Origin: Amphibalanus amphitrite
Lineage: Eukaryota > Arthropoda > Thecostraca > Balanomorpha > Balanidae
Length of the DNA: 64,000 nt
Direction: 5' to 3'
NCBI RefSeq assembly: GCF_019059575.1
Contig: NW_024881851.1
Span: 446,501-510,500, forward strand
Shown: in pieces, positions 35,651 through 60,661 of the stretch
Layout: every line of letters begins with the position of its first letter
Position numbering within the stretch: the first letter of the stretch is position 1
The notes under the pieces: generated by a model
Database searches by the model: none
What the model saw: only the letters and a program-made list of their open reading frames with translations
What the model was told of the DNA's origin: nothing
Position numbers and translations under genes: made by a program

Positions 35651-36001
35651 AGAGCGAGGCCGGTTCACATCTCGCCCATGTAGAGCGAGGCCGGTTCACA
35701 TCTCGCCCATTTGTAGCGAAGTCAGCTCACATCTCGCCCATGTAGAGCGAGGCCGGTTCACATCTCGCCCATTTGTAGCGAAGTCAGCTCACATCTCGCC
35801 CATGTAGAGCGAGGCCGGTTCACATCTCGCCCATGTAGAGCGAGGCCGATTCACATCTCGCCCATGTAGATCGACGCCGGTTCACATCTCGCCCATGTAG
35901 ATCGAGGCCGGTTTACATCTCGTCCATGCAGAGCGAGGCCGGTTCACATCTCGCCCATGTAGATCGAGGTCGGTTCACATCTCGCCCATGTAGAGCGAGG
36001 C
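35651..36001. repeat. 31-bp tandem array made from the end of a coding region
   Basis: Eleven units of 31 bp. On the minus strand each reads like CTCTACATGGGCGAGATGTGA plus GAACCGGCCTCG-type linker, which is the last coding stretch (LYMGEM and stop) of the adjacent gene followed by a few bases of 3' sequence. The copy nearest the gene is the authentic C-terminus; the other ten lie downstream of its stop. Two units share a TTTGTAGCGAAGT variant, giving a local two-unit higher-order repeat. Confidence 0.9.
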
Positions 36002-36719
36002 GTGCTCCGAGTCCAGTCGGCGCGTGCTGGGCGAGTAGAAGCCGGCCTGCGATCGGAAGTTGCCGGGCGGCAGCGGCTGGTCCCACAGCGTGCTCCACAC
36101 CATGCGCACTGGGTTTGGACGCTTGGTGGATAGGCTGGGCGGGTGTGTAGGCGCTCTCTCGACCCTGGTTGGTGGCAGAACAGAAAACATTACGTCAGTG
36201 GTGGCAAGTAGCCTTCGACTGCGGAAACTAGCGGGTGCGCAGGTTTCGAAAGCCAATCAGGCGAATCATGGGGCCAAGTCCCGTTGGCCGTTGGATTACA
36301 ATCATGGCCCATTGTCCGTAGCCTGGACTGAACAACTTAGATCGTCGGAGTGGTATGACAGTTCGGTAGTCGGTAAGAGCTACCAAGAGTAGCGCGTATG
36401 CAGTAGAGAGCGTAGTAGAGAGGGGTAAAACTGAATTCACTGAAGTTTCAAGAATTGCTTAGGGGCATAGTCTTGTATGCCGTATGGACTATTGAGCATT
36501 GATAATCGCTACTATATCGATTAATAATTGGAGACCCTCTCACCTGAACAGATTCGCGAAGTACTTGATGAGAACCATCATGAGTCCGACGAACACCACC
36601 AGCAGGACGATGGCGCAGCCGAGGAAGATGAAGTTGCGCCCGTACTCTGAGCGGATGTTGGCGTTCCACTCCTGATCCGGGTAGCCCTGGATCGGCCGGA
36701 AGTCGCGAGGCGCTGACAT
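35975..36719 (-). CDS. Small single-pass membrane protein, two exons, family unknown
   Basis: I do not recognise the family. Exon 1 runs from 36719 (ATG) to 36544 and exon 2 from 36164 to 35975 (TGA). The donor TTCAG/GTGAGA and acceptor ACCAG/GGTCGA join in frame to give 121 residues. The N-terminal part (MSAPRDFRPIQGYP, EWNANIRSEYGRN) is followed by one hydrophobic helix at about residues 30-50 (FIFLGCAIVLLVVFVGLMMV) and a basic edge. The second half is soluble: RPNPVRMVWSTLWDQPLPPG and FRSQAGFYSPSTRRLDSEH, ending LYMGEM. The clean phase, consensus splice sites and composition support a real gene. Its 3' end is the source of a 31-bp tandem array. Most likely a type III or type II single-pass protein; no signal peptide precedes the helix. 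Confidence 0.72.
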
Positions 36720-36763
36720 GACGACCGGCAGTCACTTCCTGCGGCGGAAGAACAGCTCGTCAA

Positions 36764-39700
36764 AATGTCATCGAGTTATGTCATTACGACCGTGCCCTTG
36801 ACGAGTTATTCGCGATTGATCGGAACATTTTGGAGATAAGGAGCTGAAAGCTGGCATACCGTATACCTACGCCCTCAGTGGCGCTGAGTCACTGGCGTCT
36901 GGCACTAGTCACTTAGTCAGTGCCAGGGGAGATGAGATGGAACTTATGGGGCACAGTAACAGCTCCCAAGCCCTCACAACTTGTATATCTCGGGTTTTTC
37001 ATAAAAATCGCAAGAGGTCAGGGGGGTTACGTGATCTAACCATTATGTATGTCAATGGGGAAACATACAAACTGTCATTTTGGCGCTGGCTATCTCAAGC
37101 GCATAGAATTGTGATTTCCTACAATCCATGCAAAGACCGATGCCTAACCTTTGTATTGTTGACCTTGCATAACGTGAGATATGCCGGCCCGTGACTGAGG
37201 TCAAATCGAATAATAAGCGACATGACCTCCTTCGACGAGCGTCGTAATCGGGGCGACTGTGACCTTGCATCAGCTACCTCATGCCTGAGGTCAACACCTT
37301 AAATTGACCTTTCCCAAACAAAAACTATGTTGCTCGACGCATCTCAGCATGACGGGACACCGTGGTGCCAAAATCGCAGCGCTGCAACCGTCTTTGGCAA
37401 AGTTGTTCACGAAAAACCAACCCTCTACCGTCGGGCGTTGGCCTGACCTCAGAGGTTACCGGTTTAACAGCACCGACCACACTTTGGCTTTTTAACTTAC
37501 AGTGGTTGATTTGATGACATGATGTATTTAGCTTATATCTCAGATTCTGTATATCGTGGGACCCTCGGTCAGGTCAAGTTTTTTCAAGATACCTAGGTCA
37601 GGTCAGGTTCGCAGCCTCTCCATTAGGTGGGTGGGTAGGGTACTGGGTAATGGTATAGTTCAATGCGCGAATTAACTGCGCTTTATTCGGGCAAAAGAGG
37701 CGCAATTCATTTCTTACAAATCAAAGTATACTTATACATAGAAATATAAGCGTGTCTTATTTCTACACATTAGCATGATTACCTATTGTTTAGCATGCAA
37801 TTGCAATGAAGCATGAACAAAAGTCAAAACATAACGGGGCGTAAAGCTTCTTCATGCAGTCAGCAGTGCACCTGCGTTACAAAACATTGCAGCTTAGCTC
37901 ATTGTGAATATTATTAGTTTTAACTTATGTAATATAAGTTATAACCATATGTAGGACTATCAGTTAGGCAACACACGCTTCCGTTTCAGTCCAACTCACC
38001 CCCAGTTTGTGTGCAGGCGGTGTCTGTAAGATTCGCCCAAGCAGCGACGCCCCGGCACTCCAACGTACGCCACCCCTCGTTGTCCGTCGCTCCCGCCTGG
38101 CCGGCCCGCTCCTCACCCCCCAGCCGCGCCCCTTACCTGTCCGCCGGCGTGCCCGGCTCAAACTCTCACCTTGACGCCGTACCTGGCGGCCCGTCGCCCG
38201 CCGCCAGCCCGAGCCGGTTGAGCGCCGTCGACCGCTGAGCGCGGCTCAAACTCGCAGCCCAACGCACTGCCATAGTGATTACATGCGCTGTATTATCCCG
38301 TATGTTTTAACTCGTATATCACCCATAAAGCCCATATCTCGCTTAATTTATACCAAGGTTACTTTTTCAATGCCTATAAGGCCTTGTTTTTATTACGCCC
38401 CAAATAGGCAAAACCTGCGAAAGTCGCAACGCAAACTACAAATCCCCGACCGAAGGATGGGGTGATAATACCCCTGACGGGTTTCCGCAACTGCTCGGAG
38501 CGTGTTACAGATAGTGGACTGGAAATTTGGGTGAATAGCCTTTTACTTTATATAGATGTTTACGTACCTACCAGCCGCATTTTCAGGTCAGGTCATGAAA
38601 ATGCCACTACATCGCAACACTTATGTCGGGGAGTCTTTTCCAGCCACTAGGAAGATGGAGCTTGCAGGAAGAAGCAAGCCCCCGAGTCCTTTCAAATTTG
38701 TTGATCATGGACTTTTATAAGGTCCACCTGAGGTCAGATCGGTCACGTGATCTTTCATTATGGTCCTCCCCGTGGCCTTAGATAGAGGAAGACGGAGTCG
38801 GAGAAGGCCCCCACTGAATTCAGAATGAGGTGCCGAATCGATTGATGTGTAACATGCTCTCAATCATCTAGCCTTTTTACCCCATCACTCTATGACCTGA
38901 CCTTGACCTGAGGCGGTTCTTACCTAAACAGAAAGCATATCAATCGACTCGGCTTGACACTCCAAACGCGATGGCACAAAACCGTTACTCTGTGTCTATG
39001 TAATGTATATCACGCACCTACCCTTTCTGTGGGTTGTTTATATAAACTAGAACCTGTTGACCCAAGACTTGAAAATTGGATAGGCACCATACGCATTTCA
39101 CTTAAGCCCGTTTGACATTCAGACTCTTGACCTTTGATGACCTTTGTTGATCCTTGTTCTTCTGGTAAAACAAACATTAATCGGAAGAAAAATTAATTAA
39201 ATGTTCGCTTGGTCATTCATGCCAAGAAAACGTGGAGATGTAGCTTAAAACAATTAAAGCGCTCGTATAACTACACAATAGCCGTTGTCACGACGGCCAT
39301 CTGGTAGGTACAAATTTGTTGCAGATTAGGTGCAATTTGGTGCTAATTTGGTCAAATTAGGTGCATTCACCAGGTAGCCCGTCGTGAAAACGGCTAATAG
39401 CTACACGCATGTACTATATCTAATTATTTAGGTGTGAAGCCGTTTATTGAGACGTTTACAGATGCAGTTCTGTGCTGGAAAATAACGACCCTTTCAAGAA
39501 AATGTTGTATCCAGCGGAGAGAAAGGAAGATCGGTGCGCACTGGCGATGCATGGAAACTGCATCGAAGTGAAATGGATCGAATGAGACGGTATGTATAGC
39601 ATGTAACATCTAGCATTTACACATCTAGCTTTTACCAATAATAAATTTATCAATAATAAATAGGATAAAATACCAATAATACCAATAATACCGTTTACCA

Positions 39701-40130
39701 ATATTAAATAGGAACTATGGCTACTGGCTAGGGCTAGGCAGTATGTTAGTTGACATTGTATGGTATTGATGTCACTTTAACGTTTACTTTAAAATGTTTC
39801 TTTATGAGTTTCGGCATAGACAGGTAGCCATAGAGTTGATGTAAGAAATAGGATAAAGTAAGAAATAACCGGTACTTTTCGCTTTATTTGCCCGACCAGT
39901 AGGCGCTCATAGGATGAGGATTAGACCGTCAGGGCATGCGACCGCAGTGGGGTCGTCCGATGATGGATGGGCTGAGTGGTGGGGAGGGTGGATGGCCTGG
40001 GGAGAGGTGGGGGCGGGGGAGGGGTGATGACCGGCCGGTCGGCCGGCTGGGCCGCGCGGTGATGTCACCGACCGCCGCTCGGCCGCGCCAGTCGCGCTGC
40101 CGGTCCAGGGCCGTCCGGAGGTGATACGGT
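36764..40130. other. No certain gene; GC-rich patch at 37970-38250
   Basis: The CpG-rich patch could be an untranslated exon or promoter of the plus-strand TNF gene, but has no recognisable coding content. The remainder is AT-rich with scattered AGGTCA words (37560-37610, 38700-38910). The last 200 bases before 40137 are very GC-rich and may be the TNF promoter and 5' leader. Confidence 0.4.
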
Positions 40131-40136
40131 GGCGAG

Positions 40137-42264
40137 ATGGCGGCGGAGGGGAGGAGCGCCGCCGGCGGCTGGTGGCCGGCCGTCTGCGTGCTGCTGTGCC
40201 TGGCGCTGGCGGCGCTGGAGGTGTTCCACCTGCAGCAGACGGCGGAGCTGCGCCACCAGCTGCTCAGACACCGCGGCCGGCTGGACGCCCTGGAGCAGGC
40301 GCTCACCGACACACTGGTGAGTACACATTGTTCGCCGGAACAGCACACACCCAGCGCCCAGACATACACGTCACACACGCAGTCTGTCTGTTTACAAATG
40401 AAACGACAGCTATATTCTCGTCGAGGCATTCAGGAAATGAAAATGAGGCATTCGTCAGACACCGACGGATCAGCTGATTTTGCTTCGGGTCAGGTCACGA
40501 TCAAATAGGGATCAGGACCTTGTTGACATTTTGAACTTTATTAAAATCAAATGTTTCTATAGAACATTATCTTTAAATAAAAAGCTTTTGACTTGCTCGA
40601 TGTTGCTCCGTGCCCGGCTCATTTCGCAAAGTCAGGGGTCTTTCCAGCATCTACCTTACCTACAAGGTCAAGATCAAAGACATTTAAAAACTCCGGCCAG
40701 CAGAACCGTTTCATAATTCCCGGATATTTATGAAAACAGATGCCTGTCGGGGGCATCGACATAGCGGCAATGTTTATCAAAATGAGCTGTCACCATGGAG
40801 CCCGAACCTGATGAAACGACAAATGTGGGGTCGCGAAATAAACTGTGACAAAAGGGATGAAAACGGAATGCCTGCGGATTTTGTGATTGCAGAGGTGTGC
40901 ACCGTGCAGTATGCACAAAAGGATGTTGTCACACCGAGAGCATTTAAGTGTAGGGGAGAGTGGGGCAAAGCGGCCACCCTAACGTTTCTAACGATGCCGA
41001 CGCTTGATTTTTAAACTTGGAAAGATTCTTTCTATACCAATGTGATCCCTATTAAATTGTCTTTTATTCCAACTGCGTTTCATTTCCAAAGGCGTTCACA
41101 TATGGGAGATATTGACAAAACTTTAAACCTATAGCATATTGGCCACTTTGCCCCATCCCTGAGGCAAAGCGGCCACTGGCGACTTCTCAAGTCCCGATAT
41201 GAGAAACAGAATAGTTGCCTCATGCACGACTAGGGTATTTGATGGTGACAAGGTTTAAGGGAAGATGGATGTTTACTTTGTTATCTTCCCATCTATTGCT
41301 AAACAAAGAAAGAATTTTCTTGGAAAAACATTTAATTGCATAATTTGGTAACTCATGTAACCGAAAAGTGGCCAAGATGAATGCATGACGACACATTTGA
41401 ATATAAATAATGTTTTTATCCAGATGGAAACAACTTATGGCCAATTGGGGGCTGGCCACTTTGCCCCGGCCGCTTTGCCCCGCGCATACCGTCCGAGACA
41501 AAAATATTCCAGCTCAGCTATTAGTGGGGTAAAAAGCATTAAAATTGGTAGAAGGCATGTACGATAACCACGCAATGCATGGACAAAAACGCTTATAAAA
41601 ATTACAAACGGTTATGGAATAAAATAACATTTAAAAATTGTAGACATAATTGGTAACCTGGCAAGAAATGCTTTTCCGTGTTTCACAGAACAATGGCGAT
41701 GGGCCTGAAACCCCGGTCTGGCTCATTCGAACGACCGCAAAGAGAAGTATAATTGGAAATCATAAATTGGAACTGACGCCAGCTGTGGAGGGCTAAAACG
41801 ATGGATGGCCGCTTTGCCCCGGGTGGCCGCTTTGCCCCACTCTCCCCTACCTAAGTATTGAGAGGTGTTTGTCATACAGAGGAGCACGGTGCGCCGGCGC
41901 ACCGTGGCCACTCTGCCGCCTGCGGTGGGTGGCTCCTCGAGCCGCCTCTGACCGAGATCCCACCACCGTCAGCTCGTGTTTTCCTGGCTGGACCTTCCTC
42001 GGACGTTTCCTGGACGAAACCCGTGTAGGAAACCGTCGAACCCATGTGTGTATGTGTGTGAATGGCGACACGCTTATGCTTCCTCCGATCTGTATGCTCC
42101 GGGTCTTGTGGAGATTCTGCTGTTACCGTATTATGACATGGCATTACGTTTAGCTAGCCACTTGCAGTAGCGGCGGAACACTTTCAATTAAGGGGGGGGG
42201 GGGGGGGGCACTGCCGACTTTTGGTCCCATTCTTTCCATTCAACGCCCATCTCTCTCCCTCTCT

Positions 42265-42353
<89 letters not shown>

Positions 42354-45300
42354 TCCAATAGTTATAGCGTGGGCGGTGATCGTCGCGAGACGGACGGGAA
42401 GCGTCGCGTCGCTGTCGCCGCGGCAGCCGAGAGTCGGAGACGCCGACGCCTTTGTGCGACACGGGCGGTGACGCGGCAGTGCGTATTGGGAGACGTGACG
42501 CAGCAGCGTTTCCTGAATCCTGCGGCCATCTGGACCGGATGGCGGGTCGGACTTTACCGCCGGCCCTGCCGATCTGCTCACAGCCACTGGGGAACTTATA
42601 ACAGCTCAGTCTCAATTCCGTCAACTCGGCCCATATTCAGTCCCACGTTCAGTCGGCCGGATGTCTATCCACTATATAAACTATTCTTGTCGGTAGCCTG
42701 TTGCCTACACGGCCTCGGAGGGGAAACGGCATCCAGTCCGAGTCCCGACAGTCACATACCTTATCCGCAAGTACAGTAGTTGTAGTTGGGGATAGATTTG
42801 AAAACTGTCATGGTGTCATGTAAGTTGTAACGCCGACCTACGACCTACGTGATGCTATCACGCTCATCATCGGCCATCGGGCCTGTTCAAATCAAATGAC
42901 GTTGAACTCCTTGGACGGTCACCCTTGCCCAGCCTTATGAAAGGCGTCAATAATTGCTTTGGAGTTTGGACTGGGTTGTTCATAAGATGCTGTATGTATG
43001 TATCAGACTCACTGCTCTGCGCTGCGTTTTCTACATATGTAGGTACGCTCCGGCCGCCCCCCCCCCCCCCACCCGTTTCGCCCCTAATGAGCTAGATAGA
43101 GCCTCGTGGAAAAAACGAGCGTGTGCGCTGTGCACCGTTGCGAGACGCAGTGATTGGGACCCGATTAACCCGCGCACCGACGGGGGGGGGGGGGCGGATA
43201 TCCGCCCCCCCCCCCCTGAGGTTTTTCGCGAATAGCGGGAAAACCGCGGCGCTACCGCCGCAAAATTTGGTATGACTATAACCTCATCAATTTTACACAT
43301 GGTGTGCAAGTTTGAACCTCTTATCTTTCAAGGTCAGGTCACCAGGTCACTTTGAATGACCCAACCTCAAGTCACTTTTTTGCAACTTTGTCACCGTGCC
43401 AGAGCTACAGTAGATGTCGGAGGCCTTTGAAAGTCGCAGGATGTTATTAGGTCATTAGTAGCTACAATTTGTATATCTCGGAATTTTGATATCGGTGACC
43501 TAAGGTCAGGTCAATTTCGCGACCTTCCCATGATAAGTCAATGGGGGAAAAATCAACTCCCTGTTTTTACCACTAAAACGGGTCGGAATGGCCCCATATC
43601 CCCATACATGACTTCATATACGACCAACCTTCACTACCTTGAGGTCTGTTTTGCTGTTGGGTAGCTGTGAGGTCATGTGACGTCATCAAAGGTCACCAAA
43701 GGTTTTTGGCCAATAACTCCGTACAGGAACAAGATACAGCCGCGTGGATGGTCTCATTGTGTTCAGCTCGTCAAGACACATCGAATGATATACATGATGA
43801 CCTCGAGGTCACGTGACCTGAGGTCAACCTTTGACCTTGACCTTTCGAGGTCAACATATATATCATTCGATGAGGATTGACGAGAGGATCACGATGATGC
43901 CCTTAGTTTGTCCCTATCTTGACTAATTCGAAAGTTATTCGAGAAAAACTCTCTCCATATCTAGCGCCGCCATTTTGACTTTTTCGACCCCTGTGACGTC
44001 ATCTTTGACCTGACCTGAAAATGACCTTAGTAAAAATTGTAGATCTTGACCGTGCGTATCCGATGCCGTTTACCGCTTGTCGCTATCTTGCTTCGTTCTC
44101 GAGATCTCAGGGGGGGGGGCGGTCATCCGCCCCCCCCCCCCGTCGCGGGTGCGAAGTTGGCGCAGACCCCCGTCGGTGCGCGGGTTAAAGGGACCCTCCC
44201 ACCTCGCATGTGTGTCGCATGTGTAGAAGGGCGGGGGTCGGATGGACCCCCCATGGTTTTTCGCGAATAACTCGCGCAAAAAGCGGCCGATCGCGACGAA
44301 ACTTTCAGTACCCTCGAGTTGATCAATTTTACACCTACTCTGAAAATTTCATGACCCGGACCCAAGTGACCTTTGACCTGTGACCTATTTCTCGAGGCCA
44401 TGTTTGGCCGGAATCGCGATTCGGCGTATGTCGGCTCGCATTAGCCGCGCGTTTGCAAGCTTCTCGTGGTTTCAAACGTTCAAACATGAGATTTGATGTT
44501 GCTCCCATGCATTTGGGTGGATGTCAAGGTCACCTGAAGGTCAGGTCAGGTCATTGACCTTTGGTGACTTCGGTTCACTTTTTCGAGCTGCACATGTTTC
44601 TAGGCTAGTTTTTGGAGCTGAATTCGAATTTAGCAACCATTTGAACATTTACGAAGAAGTTCTGGTGCCTTCGTAACATTTTACGAAGCTGTCAGAGGCA
44701 GTTGACACATACTACGAAGTCCCGTCACGACCCCTTACTGGTTGATCTGACCTGACCTGACCCGACCTGGTCTAAATGCATGAAGACAACATCTATGATC
44801 AAAACTAACACGATATTCGTGATCAGCACCCCGAAAAACCCCTTAGCAGCCATACTCTACGACTTTCTAACAGGTCCCTCCCGATTTTCCCGACTTTGGG
44901 TCATTGACCTGACCTGGAAGGTCAACCAATGACCTAGGACCTTAAAATTGGGTATCATTCATCGGCTTCCTCTCGTCACGGGCAACACGCTTGTTTTTTC
45001 CGCGAAGCTCTAGCTCGATCAGGGGCCAAACGGCAAGGGGGGGGGGGGTCCAACCGACCCCCCCCCCTACACATTTGAAGCTGGCAAACGTCGCACACAT
45101 GTGAGGGTTAAGGTCTCAGGTGAACCGGTGACCACTGAGGTCAGGTCAAGTGGCCCACGGCACGGATTCTGTTTTTGCTAAATAACATCGCCAAAAATGG
45201 TCGCAGAGCCGCGAAAATGATACCATCGTGTTTGTATTGCTCAGGCGCGTCGGATGGTATACTTTTTCTTCGATTTAGCCCAACTTGAGGTGCTGACCTC

Positions 45301-48300
45301 GGGTCTAGGTCAGGTCAGAGCCCCTCAGATCACCTGTCACCAAGCTGATCAATGGTTGTTTGATCAGCTGGAGGTCAATTGGTGGAGGTCATATTGCATA
45401 TCATTCGATTCGGCAGGTCTTCCCGAGTCCATTGGTGACTTTCGCAACTCGCTAGCTAATTGGATCGGGAGATACTGACGAACCTATGACCTCATTGACG
45501 TTATAAATGACTCACGCAAGGTCAACGATGCACAACTACAAGCAAAGCGTTACATCTTGCAAGACGCAAGTAGTGCATGGAATTACGATCCCATGTACAT
45601 GAGCTGATAGGTTTAGAGTTAAGATCATTTCCGGCGCCAAAATAACTATTCCTATATATCCCAATTGACTTATGATGGTGAGGTCACGTGAGTGTTTTGA
45701 CCTCATGTGACCTTTAGGTAAAATCCGAGATAGGTACAGGGTGTAAGACCTCTGCTGGAGGATACTAGTAGTTTCCTGTGACCATTGCCCATTCCAGAAC
45801 TGAAGTATCAAGTATGATTTTGTTCTATATCTCCAGTGGGGTTGTGATTCCGCGCCGTCTCTTCAGTCTCCATTGAAGGACGTGCTTCTGCTCCGTCCCT
45901 CCGCTGAAAGCTGTAATTATGTAACGTATTTGACCCGAGAGTTGTGATTCGGTACCGTATTTTCCCCGGGAATCGTGGTTCTGCACCGTATTTCCCCGAG
46001 AGTTTCACAACTCCAGATTATTCTCAGATACCTACCTATTCTGTACCTATAGCAACCCCCCCCCCCCCGAGAGTTGTGCTTCTATATAGGTATACCGCAT
46101 TTTCATCGTCAGTTGTGATTCTGTGCCGCATTTCCGCCGAGAGTTGTGATTCTGTACCGGACTTCCACTGTCAGTTGTGATTCTGTGCCGTATTTCCACC
46201 GTCAGTTGCGATTCCGTGCCGTATTTCCGCCGAGGGTTGTGATTCTGTACCGTTCAGCTCCGCTGACAGTCGTGATTCTGTGCCGTGTCTGCTGAGTGTG
46301 TAGTTGAAGTGCTGTATTACGCTGTACCGTTCTGGTGCCGGCCCTGACGTTCTCCGCCTGCCGCAGATGGAGTCGGTCGCCGCGGTGCGTCTGCGGCGGT
46401 CGGTGGCCGCCGCGCAGACCAGTCCGGCGGGAATCCCGATCGTGAGCCGGCCGTACGGCCACCGACCGGCCGACCGGCCCACCCAGGCGCCCGTGATGCG
46501 CGTGTACGATACGTTCGGCGCTTCCACCGACCGGCCCGGCGACGGCCGGTCTCTGCTGCCCCACCACAGGTCAGCCGGCGACAGCTCTGACCGGGCGACC
46601 GGGGCGGACCATACGAGTACCGCTGACCGGGGACCGGGTGTGGGCACCGACCGCCACAGAGCGACCGGGGGCGAGACGGGCCGGGCCACACCCCTGACCC
46701 GTAATGGGGGCTGCGGAAAGTTGTGTGTTTGAATTAATCCAATGTAATGACACGTCATAACAATGAACCGTAGATAGTTATGTTTAAATGAAGATTATCC
46801 TCATCTTTTTATACCAGAGTCGTTGGGAATCTCATCACCTCGCATGCTTTGCGGCTTCGAGTGGAAGCGATGCGAGCTGAACTATTGGCACCTGTTCCAA
46901 ATCTTCCGTAAGGTCTTGAATGAGTGACATTATCAAGTCGTGTATGAATGTGGCAACTTATGGGTATTTTGCGTCTGTTTGACATTCCACCCTTGATGTT
47001 TGTTGTTTCATCCTCGGTACTATGCCCCAGAATGCCAACCTCTATTCAACATAATTTATGATTATAAACCATAATGTCTTACTCCAAAGTAGGTCACTCG
47101 CTATCGCAATCCTGCATATAACCGTCCTGCTGTATAAACTGTGCTAAGAGCACGTGCTGACCGCACTAAAAGAGGTTAATGGTTCTCGTGGCGCCAGCAG
47201 CTACGTATCATATCTGGCAGAGGACAGAGGGTGACGGCGCGATATTGCGATGCGGACTGGAGTGTCGCTTTGAGCTCCCGTTTTGTAGAGATATGGTTCT
47301 CCGCAGTGCCCTGGCTGGGCGCCGTTCGCTGACCTTCCGTGCCCCTCCCTGCTGTCAGGAGCAGCGCTGCGTTCCAGGGCAGCCGGCTGGGCCGGGTGAA
47401 CGTGGAGCGACGGCCGGAACCGCGGCCGACAGAGGCCCAGGCGCTCCACCACCGAAAGTCGCGAGTCAAAGAGGCCGACACAGGGGCTAAGAAGGAGCGT
47501 CGCGCGAGGCCTCAGGGCGAGCGGCGCCGGTCGAAGCCAACTGAGCTCAAGCGGCTCGACGCCAAACGAACCAAACTGCGCCGGATGAAGGTGAGCGCGG
47601 TCACTGGGAGCTCGGCTGCAATGGTGCAGTCGGAGTTCTCAGATTTGTGGCGAAGTCTTCTTCGTTTTTTTTTTGCGCAAGAAATGATACTTTTAGTATG
47701 ATAAATCGTTATATTTTTGGACAGTGGACGCATTTAGATGTTGTGTGATGCTGAAGCAAATATTATCGTTTACTCGTCGGCATCGGCTGATATTATGGTG
47801 AGTCGATGTCTCTCTTCCCCTGTCGTTCGACTGCAGTCCGAGTGCCGGTGAGGCCCTCCACCTCTGAAAAGATCCGACGACACCGCCCACCTCTGTAACA
47901 GACCGTCTTTCCCGCAGGCTCGGCGGCTGGAGGAAGCCCGCGGTGCCCCGGTCGGCTTCTCACCCGGGCCCTCCAGTCTGCGCGCCTCGCCAGCCTGGCC
48001 TTCTCGGGAGTGGGGCGCTCCGCGGGTGAGCCCGAGTGGCGCCCGTGACCCGTACCCGGATCCGGAACAGGATACCGACCCGGACCCGGAGCCGGCGGGG
48101 TCCGGCGGCGGCCAGGGACACCGCGGCGGCAGCGGCGGCCCCAGGCGCGGCCGGCGGATGCAGCGAATGATGGAGGAGCTACGACAGGCACTGGGGACCA
48201 CGGCCGCGCATCTCGAGGGCCACACCACCGAGTACGCGCTGGGACACCCACATTACAACGGTGAGCGCCCTGGGACACCCACATTACAACGGTGAGCGCC

Positions 48301-50587
48301 CTGGGACGCCCACATTACAACGGTGAGCGCCCTGGGACACCCACATTACAACGGTGAGCGCCCTGAGACACCCACATTACAACGGTGAGCGCCCTGAGAC
48401 ACCCACATTACAACGGTGAGCGCCCTGGGATGCCCACATTACAACGGTGAGCGCTCTGGGATGCCCACATTACAACGGTGAGCGCAGCCGGGTACACGCA
48501 TTACAACGGTGAGCGCAGCCGCGTACTCGCTGGGACAACCGCATTACAACGGTGAGCGCCGTGGGATGCCCGCATTACAACAGTGAGCGCCGCTGAATGC
48601 GTGTTAGGTAACAGGGAGGGTGTCGAACATTACATTACGGTGGGCGCCGCCGCATCCCTCCTGATACTGAGACGAGAAGATCCGGAGTCCCTTTCCGTTT
48701 CCGGTCGACTTTCGACTGTTAACTGTTTCCAGACCGGTGTTTTATTTTTATTTTTAGAACACATTAAGTTCCTAAAAGATGCGAAGGGGGCGGAAGAAAG
48801 CCCCATTCATTCGCGTCTTCGCAGTACAGTCTCGAAGAGCTTACATTAATTGTTTACCGCAAGCAGTGCATCTCGTGCCTGGCCTAATAATGCGACTGAC
48901 CCGCGGTATTTACACCAGGGAACGGCATACTGCGTAACGCCCAGCCGGACTCGCGGTTCGCTGACTGGCGGTTCGCGCCCTGGGTGTACACGCTCGGCTA
49001 CAGCAACGACTTCACCCTGCACGGCGGGGAGATCACCGTCAAGAGGCCCGGCGTCTACTACCTCTACGCCCAGGTGGGTGCCGAGCCGCTCACCGACCGG
49101 CCTCACAGGGCCGCGGCGAGTGTCCAAAGTACAGTGCCTGAGAGCGGTATGTCATATGTGTATGCCCTTTTCGTCTTATTTGATATGCAAACTGTCCGTC
49201 TGGTGGCGTTTAATGTACATTTGACATTTTATATAAGAAACGTTTATAAAATGTCAAAACATGACGCAGTTAACACGTCATTTTCGGCAAACCCATGGTA
49301 AAAGACGGAAATTCCTTCACAGTATATGTATGTAATAATTACTATCTGGACTCCAAGATTCGAGATGACATCAGTGCTTTATCAGATGAAATATCGCAAG
49401 AATATGAGGACTTTAAATCGCCCGTACCCTTACTCCCGCCCCGATAAGTCGCTGGCTGAGAATGACCGACATTCGGCCGCTATTTCAGATAAATTACCTG
49501 GACCCGGGTGACATAAACGGTTTCGAGCTGCTCGTCTCGGGCCGCTCGTTCGCCAAGTGCCTGACAATGGAGTCGACCAACCACCGCCAGAAGGTCAACA
49601 CGTGCCACACCAGCGGCGTCACCTACCTGGATGTCGGTAAGATTGGCGATGTCAACCGTCATGTTATCTTAGCGTCACCTACATCGACGTCGGTAAGATT
49701 GGCGATGTCACCCGTCATGTAATCTTAGCGTCACCTACCTCGACGTCGGTAAGATTCGCGGTATCACCCGTCAAGTCAGCTAACTCAGCGTAGCGTTACC
49801 TACCTCGACGTCGGTAAGATTCGCGGTGTCACCCGTCATGTTATCTTAGCGTCACCTAACCGGACGTTGGTAAGATTCGAGGCGTCACCCGGCATGTAAT
49901 CTTAGCGTCACCCACCTCGACGTCGGTAAGATTCGCGGCATCACCCGTCAAGTAAGCTAACTCAGCGTAGCGTCACCTACCTCGACGTCGGTAAGATTCG
50001 CGGTGTCACCACTCACCCGTCATGTAATCTTATTGACTAGCGTCACCTACCTGGACGTTGGTAAGATTCGCAATTATATCACCTGTCAAATAAATCGTAG
50101 CGTCCTGGGCCTGGACGTCTGTAAGATTTGCGGCGCCTCTAACGACCCACGTCCTAGACAAGGTAACTGGTTAGGTAAACGGCGTCACTTATCTGGTCTT
50201 GGCCAGGCGGACCCAAGTGACCGCTGATGTATGAATGTACGTACTATCATGCTACCTAACTTGCCGGTTTATTCGGGCCGAACCCTGAGAATCAGTGGAC
50301 TGCGTAGTGCGTATGTGCTCGAACAGTTCCATGTGTCAGCGCTCAGCCATCAGCACATTTGCCCGACGCTCGTACCGTGGTCATTCACCGGCCGTTTCGC
50401 GGCTGTGACACGCCTGTCCTTCACTGCAGGTGACTCGATCAGCGTCCGGGACATTGAGAGGATGCGCATCTCGATGCTCTTACCCGACCGCAGCTTCTTC
50501 GGCCTGGTGCGACTGGCTGGCACGGGTGGTGGGGACGCCGGGCGGCGGCGGCGGCGGTCCGGGCCGAGCACGGGCGGCAGCGGGTGA
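40137..50587 (+). CDS. TNF-superfamily ligand, Eiger/ectodysplasin-like
   Basis: A type II membrane ligand that would signal through TNF receptors at the cell surface. Seven exons join in frame: 40137-40316, 46367-46569, 47359-47590, 47918-48260, 48919-49073, 49489-49636, 50430-50587; 472 residues. Residues 1-11 are cytoplasmic, about 12-30 form the membrane anchor (WWPAVCVLLCLALAALEVF), and 31-60 look coiled-coil. A long Arg/Pro-rich stalk has basic clusters (GERRRSK, GPRRGRRM) that could be furin sites. The TNF homology domain fills the last three exons: GGEITVKRPGVYYLYAQ, then YLDPGDINGFELLV, a Cys pair (395, 410) placed as in ectodysplasin, and SFFGLVRL as the last strand. Odd: 23 extra residues (450-472), Gly/Arg-rich, follow that strand. 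Intron 1 is full of transposons; introns 4 and 6 begin with donor-site arrays. The first exon is assigned by phase and position. Confidence 0.88.
40950..41850. mobile_element. DNA transposon remnant with 30-bp perfect inverted ends
   Basis: The two ends are perfect inverted repeats of 30 bp, beginning GTAGGGGAGAGTGGGGC. The related words GGCAAAGCGGCCAC and GGCCACTTTGCCCC recur inside (about 41140-41180 and 41455-41485) as subterminal repeats. TTAAGT and CTAAGT flank the ends, a possible imperfect short target duplication. The 900-bp interior has no transposase. It sits in TNF intron 1. Confidence 0.75.
42193..42357. repeat. Poly-G run and (CT)n microsatellite
   Basis: A poly-G run at about 42192-42208 and a nearly pure CT dinucleotide tract at about 42243-42352. 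The long Arg-Glu repeat frame on the minus strand is an artefact of this tract. Confidence 0.95.
43169..44184. mobile_element. TTAA-flanked element, CCCGCGCACCGACGGGG family
   Basis: It is bounded by TTAA at 43165-43168 and 44185-44188. The terminal inverted repeats are perfect over at least 17 bp (CCCGCGCACCGACGGGG), then a poly-G/poly-C dyad lies inside each end. The CCC...GGG ends and TTAA target are piggyBac-like. The 1016-bp interior is non-coding and dense in TGACCT/AGGTCA half-sites. Confidence 0.85.
44189..45107. mobile_element. TTAA-flanked element, CCCTCGCATG family, with a chimeric left end
   Basis: It starts straight after the TTAA of the previous element and ends before TTAA at 45108-45111. 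The right end (GAGGG preceded by CGCACACATGT) and nearly the whole interior match the element at 32580-33468. The left end differs: it starts with AGGGACCCTCCCACCT, the terminus of the other family seen at 19366 and 23666, then passes into CGCATGTGTG...CGCATGTGTAG of its own family. So a foreign terminal repeat is joined to this copy. Confidence 0.75.
45836..46320. repeat. Degenerate ~32-bp tandem repeat before TNF exon 2
   Basis: Repeated units around GAGAGTTGTGATTCTGTACC and TATTTCCRCCG, about 30-34 bp, clearest between 46100 and 46290. The array ends about 50-70 bases before the acceptor of TNF exon 2 (46367). The last degenerate units (CTGTACCGTTCTGGTGCCGG) run towards the exon. Confidence 0.7.
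48239..48600. repeat. Tandem array of TNF exon 4 end plus splice donor (11 donors)
   Basis: The unit is 31 bp, consensus CTGGGACACCCACATTACAAC followed by G/GTGAGCGCC, starting with the authentic end of exon 4 (48260/48261). The exon-end/donor word occurs eleven times: ten as ACAACGGTGAGCG and once as ACAACAGTGAGCG. The tenth unit is longer and also contains TACTCGCTGGGACAAC, matching exon sequence further upstream, so it records a larger original duplication. Only the first donor keeps the reading frame: read-through meets TGA after 12 codons. Confidence 0.92.
49615..50150. repeat. Tandem array of TNF exon 6 end plus splice donor (9 donors)
   Basis: The unit is about 56-65 bp: AGCGTCACCTACCTCGACGT, then CG/GTAAGATTCGCGGTGTCA, then CCCGTCATGTAATCTT. 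The first copy is the true exon 6 end and donor at 49636/49637; eight further copies follow. Units three and six carry the variant tail TCAAGTMAGCTAACTCAGCG, so a three-unit higher-order repeat of about 180 bp is present. The last units are more diverged. Confidence 0.92.
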
Positions 50588-53786: not shown

Positions 53787-53955
53787 CCTGGGCCCAGTTT
53801 CACCGGTGATAGCAGCACGCTGCTATTACACGTGTCAAATTGGGTTTCCATGGAGACGTCAACAAGCCTATTCCTCCAACACTACCAGAAGTGTGATGTC
53901 AGCTCGCGAAATGGAATAGCAGCGTGATGCTATCAACGGTGAAACAGGGCCCTGG
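53787..53955. mobile_element. 169-bp MITE with inverted ends
   Basis: The ends CCTGGGCCCAGTTTCACC and (other strand) CCAGGGCCCTGTTTCACC are inverted and continue inward as GGTGATAGCAGCACGCTGCT and its mirrored partner for about 40 bp. Non-coding; it would fold into one hairpin. Target duplication unclear. Confidence 0.7.
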
Positions 53956-54929
53956 TTGGTTTGCCATTTTCGTTCTGAGCCCAAAACATGGTAGGTAAGG
54001 AAATCGAGAAGGATATTTAGGAACCCTGATCAAAAGATGCACCAGCCCAGTTAGAAACCCAGCTCACAAGGTAATAACAATGCATATTATGACTGGACTT
54101 TGGCATCTTCAATGAGCATGACCATACCAATACTATGATCTTATCGACAGCACCACATATCATTATTATTTATCATTGGTAGCTCCGCAATGAGGCATGA
54201 CTGGCATGAGCGTATGTCTAGAAAACTATACAACCACCAGTCAAATGTATGACAGAAGTTTCTGATATATTGAATTGACATCCTTACTTGAATACTTGAA
54301 AAGATAAATATACACCTACCTCCATTTATCCGCAAGTGTATTGCAACAGACACGGACATCCTCCCTTGATAATAAGCCGATATTCCTCACTGTTGAATGC
54401 CGAAACAACGAAAATCGATGCATCCAGACGATTAGGAAGATGTGAAAAATGAAGTAGCAATTCAAATATTAATCAAAATTCTCACAGACGTCTCCAATTC
54501 ACGAATGCACAAAGATGACCCACTAAGGCAAGGCCAGGCAAGGCTATATAAACCAGGTAGAACGCTCCCGAAGAAAAAGTGGTGACAAGCAGTATTTAGT
54601 TGCCGCGACCCTCACTTGTTCAAGACTATATCCGCAAGCAGCATTTACAAGCTAGCGGAAATCGACCAATTGGCGTTCGGCAATACTCAACGCTGATTGG
54701 CCCGATGCTCGTGACGAAATTGCGGGGGACTGCAGCTATTCCCCTATGGCGTTTCATTGGCTTATGACTTTTGAAGGGGATTTGTATCAGTTTTTGTTGG
54801 GTTTGAGGCCATTTTTGAGCTTGGGTATTCTTTTCGTGACCTTTGACTATATAATAACGACATTTAATCATGGATTTCTATATACTACCGGTGTCACATC
54901 GGCCAAAAAGACCGTAAGTACATGGGATA

Positions 54930-55480
54930 GACGGACCACTGCTGATGGGGCCACACATGCCGGCGTGTGGTCATCGGAGGCCCATGAGGGCTCGACATGG
55001 GCCCTTTATGGGCCGGTATTGGCCCAGTGGGTCCAGTGCAGGCCTACCAGGGGCCGGTGGCATATAATGTAAGGCTGTCTAGGGACGTTGAGGGCTCATG
55101 GGGGCCATATAGGACCATTAGGGACCACATAAGCTAATCAGGGGTCCATTTAGGCCAATAAAGGCGCTTCAGGGACTTGAAGAGGCCATTCAAGAGCCGT
55201 GGTGGGCCCATGAGGGGACGGCATTGGTCCATCAGGTGCAGTCAGGGGATGTTGTACCGTGTACGGGTTTCTCAGTGGCCCATTTGGGCATATCAATGAT
55301 CAATTTAGACCCAGCAGGGGGCTTGTAGACCTATCAGGGCCGCTGGTGATGGTTTATCAGGGGCCAGCATTAGTCCATCGGGGCACGGCATATGCCCATC
55401 AGAGGTAATTGCGGGCCCACGCTGAACAATGATGGCCCTTCAACGGCCCCTAATGGATCTAGATTGATCCCCATGTTCCA
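54930..55480. repeat. Decayed GC-rich short repeat
   Basis: Many variants of CATCAGGGGCC, GGCCCAT and AGGGGAC occur at irregular spacing. No clean unit can be drawn; it may be an old minisatellite. Confidence 0.4.
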
Positions 55481-56708
55481 TGATGTGTCATGTATGCCCC
55501 TATGGCAGGCCTACTCAGACCCTTGATGGACGTTCCCGGCCTCTGATGACCCTATACTGAATCCTGGTGGGGCTCTTAAGAGTCTCCAATAATCCTTCGT
55601 CAGCCCATTATTACCATACGCTGGCACTAGAGGCCCCACATCAGCCGCAGGGCAGTCCGTGCCAAGACGGCATGTCTTTTCGGCCGATATTACATCGGTA
55701 ATATTAATTAAAATCATGATTTTATGGTGCCATTATATAGCTAACAGTCATAAGAAATATATTTCAACTCGAAAACAGCTCGAAACAGCATATAATCTTA
55801 AAGAAACCCTTCCGAAATCCAAAAGCCTATTCGGGTCCATAGAGAATAACTGCGGTCCCCCGCAATTACGTCACGAGCGTCGGGCCAATCAGCGTCGAGC
55901 TTTGCCGAGCGCTGATTGGTGGATTTTCCGCTAGCGCGTGAGTGCTGCTCGCGGAACAAGAGTTCGTCGACAATCCTCCACAAACGTCTGTCACCACTTT
56001 TCGTAATGCTAAACAGCCGGAGCGTACCCCCCTGCACTAAGGACAGAATATGCGCCTACAAATAAACAAACCAGTCAGCTGGTTTGTTCCCGTCGACATT
56101 TTTATAAATGTCGACATGAACTTGTAGCTCACTAGTGATATTCTAATAGCTCTCTAGATTTTTGCTTTCGTGGCTCATCCTGAAAATATTTACATTTTTT
56201 AGATAAGAGCTAACGATTGAAAATAGATTATTCACTTTCGCTCTCTATTTCAAATCAAACATAACATGCCTATTTTGTAGAAACAGCCATTTAAAATCTA
56301 AAATTTCAAGAAAACGCAAAACAGGAAAATCGGAAATAGAGATGTTATAGGAAATGTCTCTAGGTTGATGCCATTTTCTGACATTTTCAGTTGACATTTA
56401 AAAATCCCGCTCCAATTAGCTCTATATTGGCTCGCTGTTACAGATACTGCTTACAGATATTAGATATACGCGCCCGTGCGGTCACTCAATATACCCTGCC
56501 CGTGCGCGCCTGTTCGCCCGTTTAGCTCATGGTTTGGTTAAAAATATACACTGTGTTAAAAACTATATAAGAACACTTGTTCATCGAGGAACAGGCGCAG
56601 AACACACAGTGATCATTGTAATATGCTTCTTTGAATGACTCATGATTCATGAATGACTGGCACCTATGAATTCTTTGGGTCAGGGCAGTGGGTCAGGGTA
56701 GATCATAG

Positions 56709-59700
56709 ATGAGGTGTAAGATGAAGATATTTGGAGTGGTATTGTTATTATTTGATCATATTTTGTCGGGCACAAGTCAAGAATCCTTTGAAGTTCAGCA
56801 TATCGAGGACTGTCATTTGACACAGTTTTTCAGCACCACTACATACCAATGTACGGAATGTGGCAAGTTTCAAGTTCATTCAAAAGATGGTGAGATGCTT
56901 ATATTTTTTTTTTTGATAAGATTGTGTCCTGCATCACTCATTTGGAATATGATATGTATGCATATTAGGTTATTTGAAAGTGATTTATAGATATATTTTC
57001 CTATTCTTACAAAGATCCTGCATTATTTCCAAGTCACATTTTTACCCTGAGCCTTGAGTATAAAATAGATCAATCAAGCATGGCTAAGACATATTTATGA
57101 CTAGGCATGACTGTGTCCCTCAGGACTTGAGTGTGTCTGTGAGCCTGGCTACTGGCAGACATACGAGTCAGTCTCTGGCCAACTGTCATGTGTTGGTTGC
57201 CCTCCTGAGCATGTCACCTCCAAAGATGGCCTGGACTGCATTCGTTGTGAGTCCCCGCTGGCCTATGATGCCACCACCAAGACCTGCACACCATGCCCAA
57301 ATGGCACAGTGCAAGGTGAGTAACTACTAGTGAAATGGTCATGTTATTTGCTTTAATTGGTGCCATTTGGTTGTAGGCAGCCCAATCTTGTATGACTTTG
57401 ATTTTCTATTGGTACATCATGTAGAAGTTGCCAGTTGCAGACAGGCTTGCTGTATCAGCTTCTGTGGCCATGTCAGGGCACCTCAATCTGCCTCATTAAT
57501 CTCTGTAGCTAAGCAGGAGTACAAATGGCAGGGAACTTCCCTTCATCTATTCACACAGATATGGATCTTTAAGACCAGCTGATCATCCCAATGAATAGTA
57601 GCTGTCTCTGGTCCAATTGGGTAATGGTCACTGGATTTTACTAGTATTTTAAGCTCAGGAGATGGGTCCAGGCTCCAGTGACTCATAGTGTTGGCAGTGA
57701 TCCTACTCCTGACAAAATTTTCTTACATATTTATTTCCTGTCATGATATTGCATTATCCTGGTGCTGATCGGACCAGTGCGGTGCCTGGCCGCCGACCTG
57801 ACGGCGTGTGTCGCTTGTCCCCAGTGGAGCTGACGCCCAACGGGACGCGGCGCACGCGCGGCTGCCTGCGCTGCGGCGCCGAGGCGGAGCCGGCCGCCGA
57901 CGGTTCCGCGCAGTGCCACCGGTGCGACCGCTCGCTGCTGGCGGCGTCCGGCTCGTGCCGCTGTCCGGACTCACACCTGCTGCTGTCGGGCGTGTGCCTG
58001 AGCTCCTCCCAGCTCAACCAGGTAATACACGGGCACAGAGCCCTCGGGAACGGGTACGAGTGTCGTGTGAGTGCGATATGAGCGATATACAGCCGCGTTA
58101 CCGGTAACCTGAGGACGACCAGCACTGGCATCTCATACCAGTGTGGTGTGACCGACGATTCGATATAAGTTGGGTGGTTGCATGATATCAGCTGTCCATC
58201 ATGTGTCTTGACATTGCTCTGAATGTATCCATGTACTCGGTAGTTCCGTGAGCCTGTCTTATCAACATGTCTTACAGGATTCCGCCGAGACCTCTCTGTA
58301 CGCTATCGGTCAGCGTTTATGTCTGTGTGTACCGACTGTACTGTGTTGCTGCAGGTCATCATGTCTGTATCCTCGGTTTCAGGTGCCCGCTGAGGCCTCC
58401 ATGTACACCATCGACTTCGAGGACGGCACGACCATCGACTCTGCGTTTTTCCGCCGCCACAGTCGCGCCGCCGCCTTCCTATGTCGGGTGAGCCTCCGCC
58501 AGTGTAGCTCCCGACCTTTTCTGTCAGCAGAGCATCGCAGTTTACCGCAATTCTTATCGTACGTCATTTCTACATACCCTAGAAATTTTAACCTCGGGTC
58601 TTTCAGGAAAACAGTAAGTGCTGTAATTGGAAACACCAACTTAACATTTGTTTTAAATTTTTAATTATATTTTATGAGAATGTTGGAAGTTTACTTATAA
58701 TGTTAAATCGTTTTTCACACGTGACCTGGGGTCTGCACTTCCCGCAGTTTCGTCACAACATATCGGCGTGCCACCTGCTGGCCAACCTGTGCGCGATCAC
58801 CATGTACTCGGAGCGGTCGGCGGCGGCGCCGTGTGGTCAGCTGCGCCAGCTGGCCTCGGGCCGCCAGCGGCCGCCGGCTCCACACCTGCCCTGGCTGTTC
58901 TACGAGGAGGACGAGGCGCCGACGGTGCTGAGCCGCAGCCGTATCTCCCAGGAGTACACCGTGCAGCGGGACCGACAGGTGGGAACCCAGGAGTATACTG
59001 TGCAGCGGGACCGACAGGTGGGACCCCAGGAGTACACTGTGCAGAGAGACTGTCCCAGGAGTACACCGTGCAGCGGGACCGACAGGTGGGACCCCAGGAG
59101 TACACTGTGCAGAGAGACTGTCCCAGGAGTATACTGTGCAGCGGGACCGACAGGTGGGACCCCAGGAGTACACTGTGCAGAGAGACTGTCCCAGGAGTAC
59201 ACCGTGCAGCGGGACCGACAGGTGGGACCCCAGGAGTACACTGTGCAGAGAGACTGTCCCAGGAGTACACCGTGCAGCGGGACCGACAGGTGGGACCCCA
59301 GGAGTACACTGTGCAGAGAGACTGTCCCAGGAGTACACCGTGCAGCGGGACCGACAGGTGGGACCCACAGCAGCTCCCTTACCTGTGAGCCTCCCAGGAG
59401 TATATACACGGTGCAGTGAGATCGCCAGGTAACTGGGACCCGCAGCTGCCGCGGAGACGACGAACGAGGCTATGGGTTTTCGCCCGGGCGATGGTTCATC
59501 TCTGCATGTGTGTAGCACGGGAGGTGCCGTCTGTGCTGCCGGGTGATAAAAGTAGGAATATGGCATCTGTAGGAGAGAGCGGTGTGTGTTCTAGGCAGGG
59601 CAAGGCGGAAGCTGGGAGGGTGATTTTCAAACGGTCGAAAAGGCATCCACTCGTATGCCTGTGGGGCACCGAGTCTAACCGTCCCCACCCGTTCCCAGAG

Positions 59701-60661
59701 CTCGTACCTGAACCTGACGGTGGCCCGGTTCAGCGCGGACGGCCGACTGCTATAATGGTTTTAACTTTTAAATTTCCCCCTGTTTACAGGGCTCTTACTT
59801 CAACTTGACGTTAGCCCGGTTCAACACCGAATATAGCTGGGGTTTAAACGTCTCCAACCCGTCCCCAGAGCTCTTACTTCAACTTGACATTAGCCCGGTT
59901 CAGCACCGATAGCTGTGTTTTTGACTTCCCCCACCTGTTTCACAGAGCTCGTACCTGAACCTGACGGTGGCCTGGCTCAGCTCTGACGGCCGACTGCTAT
60001 TGTTCTAACTGTCCCCCTGTTTCGCAGAGCTCGTACCTGAACCTGACGGTGGCGCGGTTCAGCGCCGACGGCCGACTGCTGGGCCGGACACCGCTGGACT
60101 CTGTACGCTCCAGCGTCTGTCCGCAGCTGTCGGCGGCTCTGCGCAGCGCCACCAGGTATGGGGATGCCACCAGTCGTGGTCTGCCGTCCGAGCGGGACTG
60201 ATTACCGTACATCGGCAATGGTGTGAACTGTGACATTCTTCCGTCTGTTACGAGCTCAGCTGGTCGTCAGCAATGTTTTGTGTTATACGACCAAAAGTAC
60301 TGATGGTGCAGTGCTAACCGTGTTATTCCTTTGTGCTGTGTAGTCAGCGATACTGACTGTGCTGCCTGCTGGTTGGCCTGGTGACTGCTGTTTATGTCTG
60401 ACCTCTGTCAGCTGTGCGTTTGTGCCGTTTGCCGCGTATCTGTCCCGTGCGCTGTAGTTTAACTCAGCCGTGTGCTCTTTGGCCAGGTTCGGCTCCCGGT
60501 TCGAGCACACCTGTACACTGACCGGCCGTGACCTGCTGGAAGCCGGTCCGCCCGAGTTCTTCGAGCTCTACCTGCAGTACCAAGCCGACGAGGCGGAATG
60601 GCTGTACGCCATCCCTGTACGCGTGCTCAACTACCGCAGAAACGGACGGTATGTCAACCAG
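56709..60661 (+). CDS. TMEM67: Meckelin (TMEM67), N-terminal exons
   Basis: Meckelin is a multi-pass membrane receptor-like protein of the ciliary transition zone. Seven exons join in frame: 56709-56889, 57124-57315, 57825-58021, 58383-58487, 58748-58978, 60028-60155, 60487-60661 (403 codons). They cover a signal peptide (KIFGVVLLLFDHILSG), the Cys-rich repeats (LECVCEPGYWQ, SCVGCPPEHVTSKDGLDCIR, CTPCPNGT, CRCPDSHLLLSGVC) and the extracellular middle domain (YTIDFEDGTTIDSAFF, CHLLANLCAITMYS, SYLNLTVARFSADGRLLG, PEFFELYLQYQADEAEWLY). Human meckelin is 995 residues, so the membrane helices and C-terminus must lie beyond the window, or the gene is broken: a hAT-derived gene follows directly. The intron between exons 5 and 6 has duplicated splice sites at both ends. 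ATG 56709 or the in-frame ATG 56721 could be the start. Confidence 0.92.
58945..59375. repeat. Tandem array of TMEM67 exon 5 end plus splice donor (7 donors)
   Basis: The true donor is at 58979 (CCGACAG/GTGGGA). The exon tail CAGGAGTACACYGTGCAGCG and GGACCGACAG/GTGGGACC recurs with donors at 59018, 59086, 59154, 59222, 59290 and 59358. The first step is 39 bp, all the rest exactly 68 bp, so a 39-bp duplication came first and a 68-bp dimer (one half ending GACCGACAG, the other GAGAGACTGT) was then amplified. The exon frame stays open through the whole array, and use of donor two would add 13 in-frame residues copying QEYTVQRDRQ. Confidence 0.93.
59688..60085. repeat. Tandem array of TMEM67 exon 6 acceptor plus exon start (5 copies)
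   Basis: The word CAG/AGCTCGTACCTGAACCTG and the following exon bases (ACGGTGGCCCGGTTCAGC) occur five times, with exon-like starts at 59699, 59790, 59869, 59946 and 60028. Each is preceded by its own pyrimidine tract and AG. Only the last continues into the full exon; the others break off after about 50 bases (often at CGACTGCTAT) and have stop codons or no donor. Spacing is 77-91 bp. Confidence 0.92.

What the first reader, a model, noticed from the sequence alone, without database searches (positions are those of the whole stretch)
35651..60085. Exon-edge minisatellites as a genome habit
Five arrays in three genes within 25 kb start precisely at exon boundaries (three donors, one acceptor, one stop), plus a degenerate array ending just before TNF exon 2. 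Intergenic minisatellites exist too (22255-23160), but the coincidence with gene edges is striking. Inference: a duplication process (slippage, break repair or transcription-linked damage) prefers exon edges, or purifying selection tolerates duplication only where one intact copy remains, filtering arrays to the intron side. This is my best candidate for an undescribed phenomenon in the window.
Basis: inference. Interest (0 to 1): 0.9.

Follow-up and report, generated by a model that had tools for sequence, protein, structure and literature searches.

The report
Repeated exon edges in an arthropod
In this arthropod-like genome short pieces of DNA that straddle the end of an exon are often copied in a row beside it, leaving strings of look-alike splice sites; such arrays were known from a few lancelet genes, and here they recur in many unrelated genes.

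Summary
Five arrays in three genes (small membrane protein, TNF/Eiger-like, TMEM67) carry an exon edge: three donors, one acceptor, one stop. They do not start at the boundary; each straddles it, with the exon end as terminal copy. Five of 7 minisatellites do this; random or purged placement gives 0.15-0.38. The array before TNF exon 2 is not of this kind. All five recur on a second haplotype contig; three differ clearly in copy number. In 56 kinase and myosin exon loci chosen before their sequence was seen, 18 of 20 local duplications hold a splice junction (read by eye, one borderline). Genome-wide, AGGTGAG in triplicate has 4,360 matches against 707-864 for permutations, but AGGTAAG and CCGCAGG show no excess. 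The kind is known: amphioxus 'mirages' (PMC3087553). New are the lineage, the scale and a stop-codon case. Most likely short tandem duplications arise preferentially in exon DNA, and selection keeps those that leave one intact exon with its splice site. The mechanism is inferred.

The parts
35649..36001 (-). Stop-edge array: 11 full units of 31 bp and a partial one, each full unit holding the last ~24 coding bases and the stop codon of a small membrane-protein gene (stop at 35975-35977)
   Evidence: second haplotype also 11 full units with different sequence
35975..36164 (-). Last exon of the small membrane-protein gene (first exon 36544-36719)
47918..48260 (+). TNF/Eiger-like exon 4
48239..48592 (+). 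Donor array: 11 units (31 bp, one spacing of 43), each with ~22 exon bases and donor GTGAGCG (the ninth unit is the most diverged)
49489..49636 (+). TNF/Eiger-like exon 6
49617..50130 (+). Donor array: 9 units spaced 56-70 bp with donor GTAAGATT; a further degenerate copy near 50181
58748..58978 (+). TMEM67 (meckelin) exon 5
58947..59366 (+). Donor array: 7 units of 39 bp with donor GTGGGA and 5 units of 29 bp without it; degenerate copy near 59393
   Evidence: second haplotype 3-5 of the donor-bearing units
59697..60087 (+). Acceptor array: 5 copies of polypyrimidine tract + AG + start of TMEM67 exon 6; the last is the real exon start (60028)
   Evidence: second haplotype 2 copies
60028..60155 (+). 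TMEM67 exon 6
45906..46318 (+). Intronic 31-bp array before TNF exon 2: NOT an exon-edge array

Best explanation
These are 'mirage'-type arrays: tandem DNA duplications whose unit straddles an exon end (donor, acceptor or stop). Short segments (units of about 28-122 bp in what I read) are duplicated at DNA level, because the units carry intron or 3' flank as well as exon. The duplications arise preferentially in or next to exon DNA. Those inside an exon mostly break the frame and are lost; those that straddle an end leave an intact exon with its own splice site and survive. They then grow and shrink as ordinary minisatellites. They are tolerated because splicing uses the site nearest the exon, although the decoy sites are nearly identical. 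Shown: anatomy, two haplotypes, recurrence in other genes, motif excess for one donor word. Inferred: exon bias at origin, filtering by selection, choice of the proximal site.
For: Unit anatomy. Placement nulls, including one with arrays purged from exons and one GC-matched, fail (expected 0.15-0.38, observed 5). Units of different arrays are unrelated, so the events are separate (six units compared, 14 of 15 pairs p >= 0.3). Three arrays differ clearly in unit number between haplotypes (11 and 8, 7 and 3-5, 5 and 2) while 18 of 18 exons compared keep their length and splice sites. 56 exon loci: 18 of 20 arrays hold a junction; 9 of 148 tested exon ends against 1.6-3.0 expected, P 6e-5 to 0.004, after dropping one locus of each of three allele-like pairs. 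AGGTGAG x3: 4,360 against 707, 739 and 864. Exons are GC-rich, 0.656 against 0.487. 26 of 29 decoy sites would bring a premature stop, yet 24 of 24 decoy donors in the fixed-register units keep GT.
Against: No excess for AGGTAAG (226 against 267) or for the acceptor word CCGCAGG (909 against 873). In the short exon loci the placement null is itself high (6.2 of 20 expected, 11 seen, P 0.011). The 18-of-20 reading was by eye, by me, not blind, and one case (L069) is borderline. Two arrays, stop and TNF exon 6, have about equal unit numbers on both haplotypes. No RNA data. GC-rich DNA as the cause is not shown: GC-matched placement still fails, and units show no excess hairpin.
Confidence: 0.6

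Rival explanations
1. Selection filter alone: duplications arise evenly everywhere, and only those outside exons or straddling an edge survive.
For: None of the 13 duplication loci of the window scan lies inside one of the exons I listed.
Against: That null predicts 0.15-0.38 edge arrays where 5 are seen, and in the exon loci 6.2 of 20 at the tested ends where 11 are seen (18 of 20 with the other exons, by eye).
Confidence: 0.12
2. A process aimed at the boundary itself (transcription- or splicing-linked damage, R-loops, nucleosome edges) duplicates exon-intron junctions.
For: Donors and acceptors are hit alike in the 56 loci (8 and 10 by my reading); AGGTGAG is in 5-6-fold excess.
Against: One array sits at a stop codon with no splice site; AGGTAAG and CCGCAGG show no excess.
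Confidence: 0.15
3. Persistence bias: the exon copy is held by selection, so old duplications at edges stay recognisable for longer and can be re-homogenised from the exon copy.
For: Outer copies are more degraded than inner ones in TNF exons 4 and 6; several two-copy cases are diverged.
Against: Some arrays are nearly uniform (TNF exon 4, TMEM67 exon 5; L037); in the TMEM67 acceptor array the farthest copy is the closest to the exon; and slower decay should give about a factor of two (inference), not ten or more.
Confidence: 0.1
4. The arrays are useful, for example as splicing regulators or as buffers of the splice site.
For: Decoy donors mostly keep GT (53 of 64 in a loose search; 24 of 24 in fixed register).
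Against: Unit number differs between haplotypes in three of five arrays; GT retention is near what drift predicts at the substitution rate of 0.125 per base seen (about 49 of 64, my arithmetic).
Confidence: 0.02
5. Assembly artefact.
For: Only one assembly was seen; the two contigs share a near-identical block of about 10 kb, so haplotype handling may be imperfect.
Against: The arrays occur in both contigs with different units, and similar ones in other contigs.
Confidence: 0.01

Closest known systems
Amphioxus 'mirages' (globin genes and, as cited there, Adh3 and others: PMC3087553; PGBD5 and, as cited there, TnC: PMC3902484; passages read. The original Adh paper, Nucl Acids Res 2002, is not held)
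   Same: Minisatellite-like tandem units spanning exon-intron boundaries, on the donor or acceptor side, with unit number differing between haplotypes (6 and 3 in one globin gene) and AG/GT kept in many units
   Different: There a handful of genes in a chordate; here an arthropod-like genome, 9 of 148 tested exon ends, and one array at a stop codon. No RNA test here
Internal tandem repeats at exon-intron boundaries of human genes in segmental duplications (PMC2812944, passages read)
   Same: Units of about 30 bp at boundaries that can change splicing
   Different: There recent human paralogs, with repeats varying between paralogs; here unrelated genes with two haplotypes compared
Intron gain by tandem genomic duplication (PMC4974935, listing and start of abstract only; Rogers model as cited in PMC3087553)
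   Same: Tandem duplication of exon DNA that carries splice signals
   Different: No gained intron is shown here; the copies lie on one side of an existing boundary
Earthworm metallothionein genes with duplicated fourth exons absent from transcripts and a minisatellite-filled intron (PMC12783039, passages read)
   Same: Extra exon copies that the transcript does not use
   Different: One gene family; whether the copies straddle boundaries was not stated in the passages seen
Introners (recalled)
   Same: Mass occurrence at introns
   Different: Introners share one sequence family; the units compared here are unrelated

Membership tests
Mirages | Tandem units that span an exon-intron boundary | tested here: met
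   4 arrays in the window; 18 arrays in other loci, one (L069) borderline. The stop array is outside this definition
Mirages | Length differences between haplotypes | tested here: met
TNF exon 6 (8-9 and 8) does not differ clearly
Mirages | Donor or acceptor side both possible | tested here: met
Mirages | Splicing of the mRNA undisturbed | not testable with these tools
   No RNA data; only predicted outcomes
Mirages | Somatic instability | not testable with these tools
   No reads or tissues
Intron gain by tandem duplication | A new intron absent from relatives, flanked by both copies | not tested
   No relative genome was available
Introners | One sequence family at many introns | tested here: not met
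   six units compared, 14 of 15 pairs unrelated, one at p 0.03; the acceptor array and the loci outside the window were not in that comparison

The most novel reading that the evidence does not exclude
Exon-intron junctions are the main birthplace of minisatellites in the genic DNA of this animal: a junction- or exon-directed duplication process has put boundary arrays on several percent of all exon ends, thousands of loci. Each offers a natural contest between near-identical splice sites, and introns grow largely from copies of their own ends, as TMEM67 intron 5 already shows.
Probability: 0.3. Interest if true: 0.85.

Novelty: new member of a known kind. Interest (0 to 1): 0.6.

Why it matters
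If the rate seen here holds, a ten-exon gene of this animal would carry about one array of repeated splice sites. That would give many natural experiments on how the spliceosome chooses among near-identical sites, a ready source of intron growth and perhaps intron gain, and a way to study how minisatellites are born. It would also mislead gene prediction and read mapping. It suggests that amphioxus 'mirages' are not a chordate oddity.

Tried and rejected
Rejected: the array before TNF exon 2 as an exon-edge case (no similarity). Rejected: the 22255-23160 array as relevant; it sits between inverted CACTGGCGGATC-like ends that recur in the window, so it looks like part of a mobile element (read). 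Rejected: a shared mobile unit. Not supported: hairpin-driven slippage (four arrays: z -0.04, -1.21, 0.02, 1.29). Dropped: the claim that the stop array changes faster than its flanks, because the near-identical block between the contigs begins at its edge; for the same reason the equal unit number of the pre-exon-2 array (11 and 11) says nothing. Dropped on rechecking: unit-number differences for the stop array (its twelfth window unit is partial; 11 full units on both) and for TNF exon 6, and an earlier figure of 10 of 146 exon ends, now 9 of 148. Inconclusive: codon-position differences among TMEM67 exon-6 copies (18/3/19), as the copies are not independent.

Results against: AGGTAAG x3 gave 226 matches, its reverse 267; by contig C205 I count 14 distinct loci for AGGTAAG and 25 for the reverse. 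CCGCAGG x3 909, reverse 873. The sequences behind the AGGTGAG loci could not be read, so it is not shown that they are exon edges; in contig C1 plus the first 1.49 Mb of C2, as far as the capped list goes, I count 15 loci, against 2 and 2 for two permutations. Single AGGTGAG words: 9 against 17 for the reverse in the 90 kb of other contigs, but 26 against 13 in the C52 stretch and 13 against 8 in the window. One query (CGGTGAG x3) did not complete.

Led nowhere: protein search with TMEM67 (no hit), Rfam (no match). Species not settled: the best single-domain matches of the TNF domain are 'Protein eiger' (6zt0) and SFRICE_029225 (6i50), ahead of ectodysplasin (that these are insect proteins is recalled); a three-domain APRIL/BAFF-type fusion (4zch) scores highest in sum. 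The size of 807.55 Mb reminds me of a barnacle draft (recalled; searches did not settle it).

Full report
What is there. The window is animal DNA. On the + strand it holds a TNF/Eiger-like gene (seven exons, 40137-50587; Pfam TNF, E 1.5e-10) and the first part of TMEM67 (seven exons, 56721-60661; Pfam Meckelin, E 8.7e-49); on the - strand a small membrane-protein gene (36719-35975) with no Pfam hit. Five arrays carry an edge of these genes. In each, the unit straddles the edge and the genuine exon end is the terminal copy.

Chance. Forty edges were listed from five gene models, three of them partial. Five have a copy of their own junction within 700 bp (score 57-75); the other 35 score 24 or less. 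About 1-3% of 3000 random window positions score as high, because the arrays themselves cover ground, so about one edge in forty is expected. Seen from the arrays the excess is larger: of seven minisatellites five have an edge in the terminal unit, while uniform placement, placement purged from exons, the gene interval alone (six arrays) and a GC-matched version predict 0.15-0.38, with P from 5e-8 to 4e-6 computed from the simulated rates. A scan that uses no annotation finds 13 local duplications, five of which hold an edge. A MED4-like gene (about 30086-34349, read, named from memory) was not in the edge list; the scan finds nothing at its edges as I read them, only a GCC-rich stretch (34078-34199) inside its last coding exon. 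It would lower the share. The test is post hoc for this window.

Are the arrays real? The genome (807.55 Mb, 2644 contigs) has a second copy of much of the window on contig C52, collinear in pieces, most of them 90-96% identical, with large stretches of the window unmatched (for example about 1.3-12.5 and 19-24.5 kb); I take it as the other haplotype. All five arrays are there. TNF intron 4 is 658 and 516 bp, TMEM67 intron 5 1049 and 702 bp. All 18 exons compared keep their length and splice sites (in TMEM67 exon 4 the last base differs and the GT follows it). From about 36.0 to 46.6 kb the two contigs are nearly identical, so the pre-exon-2 array cannot be compared.

Elsewhere in the genome. 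From 140 kinase and 100 myosin-head matches I fetched 56 loci holding 77 of these 240 matches, before seeing their sequence, favouring matches to part of the domain and, where I could tell, one of each haplotype pair. The scan finds 20 local duplications in their 87,576 bp; first-order Markov versions of the same loci give none in five replicates, and nine 10-kb stretches from other contigs give 10 in 90 kb. Eleven duplications touch a tested exon end; in such short loci random placement gives 6.2 (P 0.011). Against the array density of the other contigs or of the window, and after dropping one locus of each of three allele-like pairs, 9 of 148 ends compares with 1.6 or 3.0 expected (P 6e-5 and 0.004; the 100-bp catchment per end is my choice). 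Read by eye, 18 of the 20 hold a splice junction, some at exons the family model did not cover; 15 of 17 after dropping the pairs. L069 is borderline, as its array only abuts the acceptor. If half of the arrays in such loci would touch an edge anyway, 15 of 17 has P 0.001. In L030 and L076 both ends of one exon are duplicated. About 19 kb past the window a further two-copy acceptor duplication lies in L013. In one of the random stretches two arrays lie in a long open frame, with units of 24 and 33 bp, both multiples of three (L020), as expected if only frame-neutral duplications survive inside coding DNA; that the frame is a gene was not tested.

A motif test over the whole genome. AGGTGAG three times with gaps of 14-60 has 4,360 matches; three permutations of the same letters have 707, 739 and 864. 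Single AGGTGAG words are not commoner than the reverse in the 90 kb of other contigs (9 and 17), though they are in the window and its C52 copy (13 and 8, 26 and 13). AGGTAAG and the acceptor word CCGCAGG show no excess. Of 13 donors in my window list 7 are GTGAG and 1 is GTAAG, which may explain part of the difference; the acceptor result stays unexplained.

How it probably works. The units contain flank as well as exon, so DNA or unspliced RNA was the template, not mRNA (inference). Units of different window arrays are unrelated, so these are separate births. Selection alone does not place them. I favour duplication that prefers exon DNA, which is GC-rich here (0.656 against 0.487), followed by loss of what disturbs the exon interior. 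A junction-directed process is the main rival; the stop-codon array speaks against it. Of 29 decoy sites in TNF and TMEM67, 26 would bring a premature stop, two would add 13 or 81 residues in frame, and one shifts the frame without a stop in the part modelled. Decoy donors nevertheless keep GT (24 of 24 in fixed register; 53 of 64 in a looser search). So either the site nearest the exon wins almost always or the failures are destroyed; RNA would tell.

What is known. [quoted passage not shown] Human repeats at boundaries in segmental duplications are known too (PMC2812944, passages). The rows listed by searches showed no report of such arrays in an arthropod; the lists of 31 (25 of 84) and 40 (12 of 122) were capped, and the library holds open-licence papers only. 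A Daphnia tandem-repeat survey has no word beginning with 'splice' or 'exon-intron' (PMC3152781, term search). A prawn lectin paper reports 30- and 33-bp repeats in coding sequence, not at boundaries in what I saw (PMC7536079, start of abstract and passages).

Noticed in passing
58979-60027: TMEM67 intron 5 consists largely of copies of its own two ends (donor array about 390 bp, acceptor array about 330 bp of 1049 bp).
   Followed up: partly
35649-36001, 45906-46318, 48239-48592; L069 1-391: Four arrays have a 31-bp unit; the three window units are unrelated in sequence, L069 was not compared.
   Followed up: partly
36010-46600: The two haplotype contigs are nearly identical here (no difference over several kb) and 3-8% different just before, with the change at the edge of the stop array: collapsed haplotype or conversion tract.
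   Followed up: partly
22224-23195; also 1869-2105, 19141, 23465, 24376: Recurrent CACTGGCGGATCCAG-like ends in both orientations, as of a DNA transposon; the 20-bp minisatellite at 22255-23160 lies between such ends.
   Followed up: no
L013 8641-8851: Two-copy duplication (108 bp) of an acceptor and exon start in what looks like an NSUN6-type PUA exon (name recalled), about 19 kb past the window.
   Followed up: partly
59697-60087: Differences between the TMEM67 exon-6 copies avoid second codon positions (18/3/19), as if old copies recorded past changes of the exon.
   Followed up: partly
49617-49636: The exon copy differs from most array units at two synonymous sites in the window haplotype but equals the common unit in the other: possible conversion between array and exon.
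   Followed up: no
L020 7083-7199 and 7380-7553: Tandem repeats of 24 and 33 bp, multiples of three, in a long open frame.
   Followed up: no
63221-64000: Open frame with a weak DUF4371 match (below Pfam cut-off), transposase-like, beside TMEM67.
   Followed up: no
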